A DNA stretch of 64,000 nt from a virus. The stretch lies in the IMG/VR virus record IMGVR_UViG_3300030090_007212, positions 62,001 to 126,000 of that record; one strand, 5' to 3'. Both the position numbers and the translations under genes were made by a program. Position 1 is the first letter of the stretch. Every line of letters begins with the position of its first letter. Positions 40,849 to 45,050 of this stretch are shown here, in pieces. Under the pieces are notes generated by a model. It was not told where the DNA came from and searched no databases. It saw nothing but the letters and a program-made list of their open reading frames with translations.

Positions 40849-43635
40849 TTATTTTTTAACTTTAGCTTGTAGTGGTGTATAAACAATATCTACATAAGAC
40901 CCTTCAGCTTTTATAGCTTTTATAGTCTCATTTAACTCAGCGTGTACCTGCTCGTAGTTGGCTGCCATTGAGCCTGACCATATAGCTGGCATACTTGCTG
41001 TGTTGTAATTATCCCCTGGTCTCCCAGCGAATGTATTATTATCGTTCATTGCACTTGCAAGATATTGAGATAATCCTGGAGCGTTTGGATCCCAATTCAT
41101 TGCTTCCTCTAACATGCTGTGATAAGTATCAAAGTCACCACCAGCGGCAACTCCTTCTCTAACATGGTTATAGAAATTAATCATTGGACCATACTCTCTA
41201 ACTAAGTTTTCCAATCCTTTACGACCATTCACATATGATATAAACATTTGGAAAGGGTCAGGACCTAAACCAATACTACCTTCAAAAGTTAACCAAAATT
41301 CTCTTTTGATTTCTCCTTCAGATTTAGGTTCTTCAACTGGTGCATCTATAGGTTCTTCCACTTCACCTTCTTCTTTAATAGAATCTAGTTCCGCTTCCGC
41401 TTCTTTTAATGCCTTGGCAGCTTCCTCACCTTCAACAGCGGCCTGTTTATGCATATCCCTTACAGTTGCAACTTCTGCTTCTGCTTGAGATACCCATTCC
41501 TTATTATCTTCAGATGGGTCAGCATCATAAGCTTCTTTAGCAGCTTTAAGTTCCGCCTCTACTTTCTCTAACGTTTTACTAACAGAGTCATATTCTTTGT
41601 TAGCTTTGTCAGAAGCAGCTTGCGCCTCTTTAACTTCAGTTTCAGCCTTTTGGATTGCCTCTTTTCTAGCTTCTTCTTCAGCTTTCTTCTTAGCTTCTTC
41701 TTCAGCTTTCTTAGCATCTTCTTCAGCTTTCTTCTTAGCTTCTTCTTCAGCTTTCTTAGCTTCTTCTTCAGCTTTCTTAGCTTCTTCTTCAGCTTTCTCA
41801 ATCAAAGATTTGATATCTTTAATCTGACCTTCCAAAGTTTTCAATGAAGCATCTGCAATTGGAAGAAAAACTCCACCATTATCGACATATTCAGAAATTT
41901 CCTTTCTCTGACCTTCATATTGATTTAAAATAATAAGTAAGTCTTCAACATCCAACTCACCATTATGTTGAGGTGTGACTTCTAAGAACGCAGGAACAGG
42001 TTCAGGAGCCGGAAGTTCAACTCCACTCTCTAACTCTTTAATCTCCTCTTTTAAAGAAGATATTTTTTCCTGAAGTTCAGCATTTTCCTCATCCAATTGC
42101 GAAATTTCGTCCTCAAGAGTTACAATACTTTCTTTACTAGAAGATATGCTATCTTTAAGTTCATCAATTTCAGCTTTTGATTTAGAAATACTTTCATCAT
42201 ACTCAACTATAGATTTAATAGTCTCCGCTAAAGATTTTTGTGATTCATGAAGTTCTTTGGAATCTTCCTTTATCATATCCTCTAACTGAGCGAGTTTTGT
42301 TTCCATTTCTAAAAATTCAGGAGTATCTGGAGTTAAATCCTCTTCCATATGTTGTATCATCTTAGCTTTCTTTTCCTGCCTTTGAGCGAGTTCTTGAGTT
42401 TTCATGTCTATAGAATCTTCTATATCCACTTTTTGGTCATTTAAATCTCTTAAATCACTTTCACTCATTGCCAACTCAGTTTCTTTGGCATCTAAATCAG
42501 CTTCTCCATGCTCAACATCGTCTTTAGTTGCTGTAAGCTCATCTTGCTTTGCAGTAAGTTCAGTTTCTACCTCTTCTCTCTTAGTTTCATTCTCTTCTAA
42601 ACTTCCTTTAGCCTTAGCTAAAGCTATTAGGTTTAGTTTCCCATCAACTGGTTGGAAGGGTCCTTCCTGTTCTTTCTTCTTAGCTTCTTCTGCAGCTTTC
42701 TCCCTAGCTTCTTCTTCAGCTTTCTTCTTAGCTTCTTCTTCAGCTTTCTTCTTAGCTTCTCTTTCCGCTTCAACAGCTTCTTTTTCCGCTTTATACATAA
42801 GAATAGAGTTTTCATAACTTACAGCTTCTTTTTCAGCTTGTTTAACTATATACGACTCTCTCTCCTCATCCTGCATTTTTTCTAAAAGTTTCTCGAATTG
42901 TTCTTCAGACATACCCTCTTCTTTAGCTATAACTATAGCCTCTTCAATAATAGCGTCAGAAAAACCTTCTCGTGCTTCATCCTCAATATCAGATATTCTT
43001 TTTAGAAGAGTTGGTATTTCACCTTCTCCTTCTACTTGCATATCTGCATCAACAATTTTTTGTACTCGAAGTTGTATTTCTTGACTAACTATTCTTTTAC
43101 GAGAGCTTTCTATTGATCTACCAACAAATTCTTTAGAAGCCTCTAATGATTCTTCAATTACTTCGTCAATAGACATTTCTGCACCTTTAGATTTAACAGA
43201 AATTCTTAGTTTTTGCATTGTTTTTGTTCTTATAGCTTCTAACCCTTCTTCAATACCTTCATTTTCTACATCTGCTCTCACAGCTGCAACCAATGATTTT
43301 TGAAGATTATTCACTGCATTAAATGCGGCAAATAAAGTTGAAGATACGTCATCATTTTGGGATAAACGTTTAGACGCAGAAACACCAAAAAGGTCTTCCT
43401 TCTCTAAATTAACCCCACAAGCTTTAACTAAGTTAACTGTTGCAGTTTTTGCATCTTCTACAGAATCTCCATCATCCATGAAACCTTTAACCATTGTAGT
43501 TACTGGGGAAATATTCAGTGATATCTCAGTGTGACCTTTAAATACCTCTTTATTTTCCTCACCAGTCCAAACATTGGATCCACCTGATGCTTTGAATGAT
43601 CCACTATACCCTGCAGGTATTGCAAATTCACCCAT
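40849..43635 (-). CDS. Long coiled-coil fibre protein, downstream part of a frameshift fusion
   Basis: 928 codons from the first ATG (MGEFAIPAGYSGSFKASGG). That ATG falls in the middle of a carboxypeptidase-regulatory-like domain: upstream, in frame and without stop, are 47 codons (acidic linker, then LEDAPIEGADIEFETGETTT) reaching the end of the preceding gene, with no alternative start. Translation therefore probably enters by a -1 shift at 43776-43782, giving about 1400 residues in total. The rest is mostly coiled coil (residues 200-650), including two KKAEEEA tandem arrays, and a globular C-terminal ~150 residues (EFWLTFEGSIGLGPDPFQMF). It is likely a long tail or whisker fibre. Confidence 0.75.
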   Translation of the reverse strand: MGEFAIPAGYSGSFKASGGSNVWTGEENKEVFKGHTEISLNISPVTTMVKGFMDDGDSVEDAKTATVNLVKACGVNLEKEDLFGVSASKRLSQNDDVSSTLFAAFNAVNNLQKSLVAAVRADVENEGIEEGLEAIRTKTMQKLRISVKSKGAEMSIDEVIEESLEASKEFVGRSIESSRKRIVSQEIQLRVQKIVDADMQVEGEGEIPTLLKRISDIEDEAREGFSDAIIEEAIVIAKEEGMSEEQFEKLLEKMQDEERESYIVKQAEKEAVSYENSILMYKAEKEAVEAEREAKKKAEEEAKKKAEEEAREKAAEEAKKKEQEGPFQPVDGKLNLIALAKAKGSLEENETKREEVETELTAKQDELTATKDDVEHGEADLDAKETELAMSESDLRDLNDQKVDIEDSIDMKTQELAQRQEKKAKMIQHMEEDLTPDTPEFLEMETKLAQLEDMIKEDSKELHESQKSLAETIKSIVEYDESISKSKAEIDELKDSISSSKESIVTLEDEISQLDEENAELQEKISSLKEEIKELESGVELPAPEPVPAFLEVTPQHNGELDVEDLLIILNQYEGQRKEISEYVDNGGVFLPIADASLKTLEGQIKDIKSLIEKAEEEAKKAEEEAKKAEEEAKKKAEEDAKKAEEEAKKKAEEEARKEAIQKAETEVKEAQAASDKANKEYDSVSKTLEKVEAELKAAKEAYDADPSEDNKEWVSQAEAEVATVRDMHKQAAVEGEEAAKALKEAEAELDSIKEEGEVEEPIDAPVEEPKSEGEIKREFWLTFEGSIGLGPDPFQMFISYVNGRKGLENLVREYGPMINFYNHVREGVAAGGDFDTYHSMLEEAMNWDPNAPGLSQYLASAMNDNNTFAGRPGDNYNTASMPAIWSGSMAANYEQVHAELNETIKAIKAEGSYVDIVYTPLQAKVKK
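41669..41798. repeat. 21-base tandem repeats encoding KKAEEEA
   Basis: Six imperfect copies of a unit such as AGCTTCTTCTTCAGCTTTCT lie in tandem inside the coiled-coil fibre gene. Copy number could change by slippage and so alter fibre length. Confidence 0.8.
42672..42760. repeat. Second array of KKAEEEA-encoding repeats
   Basis: About four copies of the same 21-base unit as at 41669-41798, in the same gene, so recombination between the arrays could delete about 1 kb in frame. Confidence 0.75.
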
Positions 43636-43769
43636 TGAATTAGTGGTAGTTGTTTCACCAGTTTCAAATTCTATATCTGCACCCTCAATAGGAGCATCCT
43701 CTAATGTTCCTGTATCTCCGGTGTCGTCATCATCGCCACCGTCACCTTCTTGTTCGGCTTCAGTGTTTC

Positions 43770-45050
43770 CTATGAAAAATTTACACCAAAAAGTGTATAA
43801 ACTGCTCCTGAGTCAGTAGCTACTGGAGTAAATGATACTACAGTTTCACCACCTTCTTCGTCATAGTTACATGCATCAACATTTGTTTGAATACCATTAA
43901 CAAATAATATTGCAGTTGAAGTCTCAACTTTTCCTTCTACAGAGAAAGAGTATGCTTCACCCTCAACAGCTTCAAACTCACCAGTTGAATGTCTGTAATC
44001 AGTGTTTTGTACACCTGCTCCAGCATTTGCTTCAACTGTATCAGTTAAGTCAGATATAGATCCTTCTAAGTCAGCTTTTGCGTCAGCTAATGCTTGTGCA
44101 GCTTCTTCAGCGTTTGCTTTGATTATAGCATCTTGTGAGTCTTGCTCTTCATCTACTTCAACTTTGAATGCTTTTATAGTATCATTGACTTCATCATGAT
44201 TTGCAGAAACAGTATCCGATAGATCAGATATAGCTGAATCTAATTCTTCTCTGTTTTGTGCATCTGCAGCTTCTAACTCATCTTTAGCATCTTTTAATGA
44301 TTGAGCAGCTTCTTCGGCGTTTGCTTTGATTGCTTTGTCTTGATCTGCTTGTCCATCTGCTGTTTCATCCATGAATGCTTTTAATGAATCATTGATTGCA
44401 TCATGATTTTCACTAACTTTAGTATCTAAAGAAGTAATAGAGTCAATAATCTCAGTATCCGCTAAGTTATAGGCATCATTTAATTCCTTAAGTGTATCCC
44501 AGTCAACTTCAGCACCATCAAGAATTGCACTAACTCTATCATCTACAGCTTTAACTGAAGCATCTAATTCAGATCTGTTTTGTGCATCTTTAGTTTCTAA
44601 CTCAGCTTTAGCATCTTCTAATGCTTTAGCAGCATCTTCAGCGTTTGCTTTGATTGTAGAATCTAATTCTTCTGTTGCGTCAGCTAATGCTTTAGCAGCT
44701 TCTTCAGCGTTTGCTTTGATTGTAGCTTCTTGTGATGTGAAATCTTCATCTACTTCAACTTGGAATGCTTTTAATGAATCATTGATTGCATCATGATTTT
44801 CACTAACTGTTGCAGTTAATTCAGCATGTTCTTGCTTTCTTTCTGCAGTGTCAGCTTTAGCAGCTTCTTCAACTGCTTCAATCGCCTCTTTTCTTCCTTT
44901 AATCTCTTCAGAAAGCTCAGCGATTTCATTTTCACCTAATACTATATCAAAATTAAAGTCGAATTTTCCATCTTCATTAAGTTGGATCTCTTTAATTTGA
45001 CCAATACCAGGACCTCTTCTTAGAGGATTTGGGTCTTGCATCATCATCAT
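43770..45050 (-). CDS. Coiled-coil fibre protein, upstream part of a frameshift fusion
   Basis: A 426-residue protein starting MMMMQDPNPLRR. Several starts are possible, and any would give nearly the same product. Residues 40-330 are Ala/Glu/Asp-rich coiled coil with a ~60-residue repeat: VSENHDAINDSLKAF twice and SANHDEVNDTIKAF once, each followed by IKANAEEAA-type text. The C-terminal ~75 residues form a small beta domain (AILFVNGIQTNVDACNYDEE) resembling the 95-residue protein at 45214-45501. The last codons contain the slippery heptamer A-AAT-TTT. A terminated 426-residue protein and a ~1400-residue fusion would both be made. Confidence 0.8.
   Translation of the reverse strand: MMMMQDPNPLRRGPGIGQIKEIQLNEDGKFDFNFDIVLGENEIAELSEEIKGRKEAIEAVEEAAKADTAERKQEHAELTATVSENHDAINDSLKAFQVEVDEDFTSQEATIKANAEEAAKALADATEELDSTIKANAEDAAKALEDAKAELETKDAQNRSELDASVKAVDDRVSAILDGAEVDWDTLKELNDAYNLADTEIIDSITSLDTKVSENHDAINDSLKAFMDETADGQADQDKAIKANAEEAAQSLKDAKDELEAADAQNREELDSAISDLSDTVSANHDEVNDTIKAFKVEVDEEQDSQDAIIKANAEEAAQALADAKADLEGSISDLTDTVEANAGAGVQNTDYRHSTGEFEAVEGEAYSFSVEGKVETSTAILFVNGIQTNVDACNYDEEGGETVVSFTPVATDSGAVYTLFGVNFS
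43776..43782 (-). other. Candidate -1 frameshift site AAATTTT
   Basis: Coding strand reads GTA-AAT-TTT-TCA-TAG, so A_AAT_TTT is a slippery heptamer in the correct phase, two codons before the stop. A -1 slip joins the frame that stays open into the 928-codon coiled-coil ORF. Confidence 0.7.

What the first reader, a model, noticed from the sequence alone, without database searches (positions are those of the whole stretch)
43635..43790. Programmed -1 frameshift A_AAT_TTT fusing two fibre ORFs into a ~1400-residue protein
The 426-residue ORF ends GTA-AAT-TTT-TCA-TAG, a slippery heptamer in the right phase two codons before the stop. The -1 frame is open for 47 codons before the first ATG of the downstream 928-residue ORF, and those codons encode the first half of a beta domain (EDAPIEGADIEFETGETTT) that is completed by MGEFAIPAGYSGSF. 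No start codon exists in that stretch, so frameshifting, or an indel error in the five-T run, is required to express the domain.
Basis: partly seen in the sequence, partly recalled or inferred. Interest (0 to 1): 0.78.

Follow-up and report, generated by a model that had tools for sequence, protein, structure and literature searches.

The report
Conserved frameshift lengthens phage fibre-like protein
In a contractile-tailed virus that probably infects Bacteroidota bacteria, ribosomes appear to slip back one base just before a stop codon so that one gene gives both a short (426-residue) and a long (about 1,400-residue) fibre-like protein, and the same slip site, followed by an RNA hairpin, is kept in two diverged relatives.

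Summary
ORF 43770-45050(-) ends GTA-AAT-TTT-TCA-TAG, and the -1 frame is open past this stop into the 928-residue ORF, with no ATG/GTG/TTG for 47 codons. The heptamer alone proves little (4 of 46 window ORFs have one near the stop). Relatives decide it. Loci found through the adjacent tail-sheath gene include two contigs (L014, L076) with the same two-ORF, -1 arrangement at the homologous place: G_GAT_TTT_TCC_TAG and T_TTT_TTG_ACG_GAA_TAA. Their -1 reading has no canonical start for 81 and 127 codons, yet the peptide right after the slip is conserved (FIGNTEAE / FLGITEAN / FDGIIDAG). The RNA just after the slip folds far more stably than synonymous recodings in all three (z about -4 to -5). 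Synonymous divergence WIN-L014 falls to 0.12 in the first 14 codons, against 1.55 in codons 15-47. An indel error or internal start cannot easily explain this. Best reading: programmed -1 ribosomal frameshifting makes a short coiled-coil fibre-like protein and a form extended by 975 residues, beginning with a transthyretin-like domain. Phages are known to add C-terminal domains by frameshifting; the proteins, the huge extension and the SD-less (Bacteroidota-like) context are new. "Fibre" is inferred; no product was measured.

The parts
43770..45050 (-). upstream (0-frame) ORF, 426 aa: short N-terminal segment, coiled-coil repeats, C-terminal beta domain
   Evidence: Apolipoprotein-type coiled-coil similarity only
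43773..44006 (-). C-terminal beta domain of the short form, 7 strands predicted, last strand ends at the slip site, so the short form looks complete
   Evidence: AlphaFold2 model pLDDT 74 on 3 sequences; homologous in L014 and L076
43776..43782 (-). slippery heptamer A_AAT_TTT (shared core T_TTT_T in L014 and L076)
43770..43772 (-). 0-frame stop TAG, one codon after the heptamer
43737..43765 (-). RNA hairpin H1, CACTG-AA-GCC(9-nt loop)GGT-GA-CGGTG, starting 10 nt after the slippery TTT; same stem sequence in L014
   Evidence: z -4.4 against synonymous recodings
43719..43741 (-). alternative RNA hairpin H2, CGGTG..CACCG, sharing CGGTG with H1; corresponding hairpins in L014 and L076
   Evidence: z -4.6, none of 1000 recodings as stable
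43636..43776 (-). 47-codon -1-frame stretch with no ATG/GTG/TTG, protein-coding by conservation (acidic Gly/Asp linker, then first half of a beta domain)
   Evidence: dN 0.18, dS 0.99 in codons 15-47 against L076; alignment A1
43513..43707 (-). transthyretin/CarboxypepD_reg-like domain (residues 24-88 after the slip), straddling the first ATG at 43635
   Evidence: Pfam PF13620 sub-threshold E 0.007; AlphaFold2 model with best chain carboxypeptidase D Z 5.7, 57 aligned, rmsd 2.1; low-confidence model overall
40849..43635 (-). downstream ORF as called from its first ATG, 928 aa; read from the slip it is 975 aa: helical region, coiled coils, unknown C-terminal domain
37666..40485 (-). tail sheath protein, 939 aa, next gene downstream (neighbour used to find relatives)
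   Evidence: PHROG 23, E 1.9e-63

Best explanation
The two ORFs are one gene decoded by programmed -1 ribosomal frameshifting. Most ribosomes are expected to terminate at TAG (43772-70), giving a 426-residue coiled-coil, fibre-like protein with a finished C-terminal beta domain. A fraction, held up by an RNA hairpin just downstream and perhaps by the nearby stop codon, slip back one base on A_AAT_TTT (AAT TTT to AAA TTT) and read on in the -1 frame. That gives a 1400-residue form carrying an acidic Gly/Asp linker, a transthyretin-like beta domain, a helical region and a long coiled-coil tail. Shown: site, phase, conservation of the site and of the encoded peptide, synonymous constraint, excess RNA structure. 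Inferred: that slippage occurs at a useful rate, that the short form is the major one, that both are virion appendage proteins, and the role (a fixed ratio of short and long appendages near the neck and tail sheath).
For: Same -1 overlap at the homologous site in two relatives whose sheaths are 78% and 69% identical and whose aligned downstream domains are 35% and 61% identical to this one. Conserved peptide from the first codons after the slip, with no canonical start for 47, 81 and 127 codons. First 14 codons WIN-L014: dS 0.12, all 9 shared residues use identical codons; codons 15-47 dS 1.55, the rest 1.06, sheath 0.94. Hairpin zone more stable than synonymous recodings in all three: H1 z -4.4, -5.1, -2.1; H2 z -4.6, -5.5, -4.5; junction windows rank first or second among about 460-710 windows per gene pair. 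L014's G_GAT_TTT + one codon + TAG is the layout of the experimentally studied pea enation mosaic virus site GGAUUUU_UGG_UAG (PMC4737148, PMC5009743). The first half of a domain lies before the first ATG.
Against: Only three sequences carry the junction, and no product or rate was measured. The hairpin starts about 10 nt after the slip (further in L076), at the long end of usual spacers; in PEMV a 9-nt spacer reduced frameshifting (PMC4737148). H1 and H2 exclude each other, so the active structure is not settled. No family match names either half as a fibre.
Confidence: 0.92

Rival explanations
1. Assembly or sequencing indel in the T run splits what is really one ORF.
For: Homopolymer of five T at the slip; no reads available to check.
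Against: L014 and L076, from other metagenomes and with diverged sequence, break at the homologous place in the same sense. An excess RNA hairpin and frozen synonymous sites would not arise from an error.
Confidence: 0.02
2. Two separate proteins: the downstream ORF starts internally, at its first ATG or at a non-canonical codon (ATA/ATC/ATT) near the stop, by reinitiation.
For: The genome has no Shine-Dalgarno sites (0 of 36 starts), so lack of one does not exclude a start; ATA, ATC or ATT codons occur 1-4 codons after the slip in all three.
Against: The first ATG differs in place (codon 47, 81, 127) and would cut off conserved sequence under purifying selection. The non-canonical codons are not at one position and lack the A-rich leader seen at real starts. 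A strong hairpin right there would hinder initiation.
Confidence: 0.04
3. Transcriptional slippage on the T run adds a base to some mRNAs and fuses the frames.
For: T5 or T6 run present in all three.
Against: Runs of 5-6 are short for RNA polymerase slippage (general knowledge), and a codon-phased slippery site followed by a hairpin is the usual mark of ribosomal slippage.
Confidence: 0.02

Closest known systems
Frameshift-added Ig-like (and other) C-terminal domains on phage structural proteins (phage T3/T7 gene 10, Lactobacillus phage A2, Listeria phages; reviewed in PMC5009743)
   Same: -1 frameshift near the end of a structural gene appends an extra domain to part of the protein made
   Different: Here the extension is 975-1429 residues (longer than the base protein), its first domain looks transthyretin-like, and the base protein is a coiled-coil fibre-like protein beside the tail sheath
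Pea enation mosaic virus 2 -1 PRF site (GGAUUUU_UGG_UAG with downstream hairpin, PMC4737148)
   Same: Identical heptamer in L014; heptamer, one codon, UAG, then a hairpin thought to adopt an alternative conformation
   Different: Plant RNA virus polymerase expressed by eukaryotic ribosomes; no homology; spacer 5 nt there, about 10 here
Tail assembly chaperone frameshift (lambda G/GT and its many relatives)
   Same: -1 frameshift in a tail-region phage gene giving a short and a longer product
   Different: Unrelated, far larger proteins; lies between a neck-like gene and the sheath

Membership tests
programmed -1 ribosomal frameshifting | in-phase slippery heptamer allowing -1 re-pairing | tested here: met
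   A_AAT_TTT here; G_GAT_TTT (known functional in PEMV) and T_TTT_TTG in relatives
programmed -1 ribosomal frameshifting | -1 ORF overlapping the stop, without its own start | tested here: met
   47, 81 and 127 codons without a canonical start
programmed -1 ribosomal frameshifting | downstream stimulatory RNA structure at suitable distance | tested here: inconclusive
   structure present: hairpins with z about -4 to -5 against synonymous recoding; but the distance of 10 nt or more is long and stimulation itself is untested
programmed -1 ribosomal frameshifting | conservation of the signal in relatives | tested here: met
   three diverged sequences
programmed -1 ribosomal frameshifting | fusion product made at a defined rate | not testable with these tools
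   needs reporter or mass spectrometry
phage Ig-like frameshift extensions | added domain has an Ig-like fold | tested here: inconclusive
   weak PF13620 match; best structure rows are carboxypeptidase transthyretin-like domains, Z 5.7, with Ig-like filamin and other rows about 1 below
tail assembly chaperone G/GT | small proteins homologous to known chaperones, just before the tape measure gene | tested here: not met
   426 and 928 aa; no chaperone profile match (weak coiled-coil matches to tape-measure profiles only, E 2e-4); next gene is the sheath
known phage tail fibre families | profile match to a fibre family | tested here: not met
   upstream ORF has no PHROGs match, downstream half no fibre match; 'fibre' rests on coiled coils, beta domain and location

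The most novel reading that the evidence does not exclude
The two overlapping, mutually exclusive hairpins H1 and H2, found in corresponding form in all three phages, act as a switch that sets the ratio of short to long appendage, in a phage whose host ribosomes (Bacteroidota type) do not use Shine-Dalgarno pairing and so must rely on RNA structure alone to stimulate the shift.
Probability: 0.2. Interest if true: 0.72.

Novelty: new variant of a known kind. Interest (0 to 1): 0.52.

Why it matters
Gene callers report this as two unrelated hypothetical proteins, with the second one truncated at its start; the real product is one gene with two forms. It extends frameshift-added phage domains to a very long appendage extension. 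Because the host probably ignores Shine-Dalgarno sequences, it also offers a natural case to test how far a slippery site plus an RNA hairpin suffices for -1 shifting on Bacteroidota ribosomes. The pair sits in a highly variable slot between a neck-like gene and the sheath, so it may bear on surface or host recognition (inference).

Tried and rejected
Single-protein or profile scans with the downstream or upstream ORF found nothing. No relative in 50,697 phage records for the window's downstream N-terminal part, its upstream ORF, or the L014 and L076 downstream halves; none in GTDB genomes for the domain or the sheath. Further profile scans and a search of 41 whole records behind the loci gave no fourth junction. 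L013 is homologous but its contig begins after the site, and L007 (99% identical sheath) begins inside the downstream ORF. A direct DNA pattern for the site found only L014's contig. The heptamer alone was judged weak evidence after a background count. Foldseek gave no significant match for either domain. Covariation counting was not attempted: three sequences, and MAFFT does not register L076's hairpin.

Full report
Observation. The window is 62001-126000 of a 138.5-kb viral record. ORF 43770-45050(-) (426 aa) ends GTA-AAT-TTT-TCA-TAG, and ORF 40849-43635(-) (928 aa) is open in the -1 frame back past that stop. From the slip (TTC at 43776) to the first ATG/GTG/TTG are 47 codons. A slip at A_AAT_TTT would give 425 + 975 = 1400 residues. 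A background count shows the heptamer alone is not rare: 1% of codons, 4 of 46 ORFs near their stop.

Relatives. Direct searches with either half found nothing, so relatives were sought through the neighbouring tail sheath (PHROG 23): 80 loci, and later through the 343-residue neck-like protein upstream: 43 loci. Two contigs hold the same two-ORF arrangement, L014 (sheath 78% identical) and L076 (69%), and L013 holds the downstream half only. The sites are GTA AAT TTT TCA TAG (window), GTG GAT TTT TCC TAG (L014) and AAG TCT TTT TTG ACG GAA TAA (L076). All share T_TTT_T in the same phase. The -1 peptide after the slip is conserved: FIGNTEAEQEGDG / FLGITEANEEGDG / FDGIIDAGEEDSG, followed by an acidic Gly/Asp linker and TGTLEDAPI / SGTVEDAPV / TGTLEDAPI. 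The first canonical start comes only at codon 47, 81 and 127, so no shared start could yield the conserved part. A six-frame scan of all loci then held, for -1 or +1 overlaps of this kind, found only this site and its homologues joining two long conserved ORFs.

Selection. In codons 15-47, all before the window's first ATG, dN and dS against L076 are 0.18 and 0.99, so the -1 reading is protein-coding there. In the first 14 codons after the slip, dS between window and L014 is 0.12, against 1.55 in codons 15-47, 1.06 further on and 0.94 in the sheath; all nine shared residues keep the same codon. With nine codons this is modest on its own (chance 0.004 under independent codon choice), but it falls exactly on the hairpin.

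RNA structure. The same stretch folds far better than synonymous recodings with the genes' own codon use. Hairpin zone H1: -10.3, -12.4, -10.5 kcal/mol, z -4.4, -5.1, -2.1 (window, L014, L076). Zone H2: -8.6, -11.4, -18.6, z -4.6, -5.5, -4.5. Against windows over both genes, the junction is the top or second-ranked region in each of the three. H1 (CACTG..CGGTG) begins 10 nt after the slippery codon in the window and L014; H2 (CGGTG..CACCG) reuses the 3' arm of H1, and L076 has a corresponding pair (CCGGA..TCCGG and CCGGGTCCG-ATGA-CGGACCCGG). Which one stimulates slippage is not known. That two exclusive hairpins matter as a switch is speculation.

Proteins. The short form is coiled-coil repeats with a C-terminal beta domain predicted to be complete at the slip site (pLDDT 74). 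Residues 24-88 of the extension resemble a carboxypeptidase regulatory (transthyretin-like) domain: sub-threshold PF13620 and best VIA rows Z 5.7, 57 aligned, rmsd 2.1, from a low-confidence model. Its first half lies before the first ATG. Neither ORF matches a phage fibre family; 'fibre-like' is an inference.

Context. The interval between the neck-like gene and the sheath varies from 310 to 7262 bases among relatives (neck-like protein 43-87%, sheath 53-87% identical), and many close relatives (L008, sheath 87%) lack the pair. It is a variable slot. None of 36 starts in the window has a Shine-Dalgarno core, and A is enriched at -3, -4, -6 and -11 to -14, as described for Flavobacterium johnsoniae (A at -3, -6, -12, -13; PMC6847099). 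The host is therefore probably Bacteroidota (inference); nearest named sheaths include a Flavobacterium phage at 35%. Bacteroidia ribosomes generally fail to recognise SD sequences at initiation, although prfB shows that pairing can still occur during a long pause (PMC8710568). So a dnaX-type SD stimulator is unlikely here, and RNA structure would have to do most of the work.

Known parallels. Phages add Ig-like or other domains to structural proteins by -1 or +1 frameshifting (PMC5009743). L014's G_GAT_TTT + codon + TAG is the layout of the pea enation mosaic virus site, whose heptamer, spacer, stop and hairpin were tested by mutation (PMC4737148). The principle is known; the proteins, the size of the extension and the host context are new as far as these searches reach.

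Verdict. Programmed -1 frameshifting, confidence 0.92. Rates, the major/minor split and the virion role remain to be measured.

Noticed in passing
45498-40485 (-) and homologous interval in about 40 loci: Interval between the 343-aa neck-like gene and the tail sheath ranges from 310 to 7262 bases among relatives and holds different fibre-like or repeat genes: a variable cargo slot.
   Followed up: partly
all minus-strand gene starts in the window: 0 of 36 starts have a Shine-Dalgarno core; A-rich leaders at -3/-6/-12 point to a Bacteroidota host.
   Followed up: partly
L018:4917-6814: A 362-aa tail-region ORF intact in L016, L061 and L062 is broken in L018 into a 251-aa ORF and an open -1 frame without a slippery site; indel or real break not resolved.
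   Followed up: no
37666-40485 (-): Unusually large tail sheath (939 aa); only its last 360 or so residues match the common sheath profile.
   Followed up: no
44060-44830 (-): DNA-level repeats inside the coiled-coil part of the short form (73-86% identical copies), suggesting growth by duplication.
   Followed up: no
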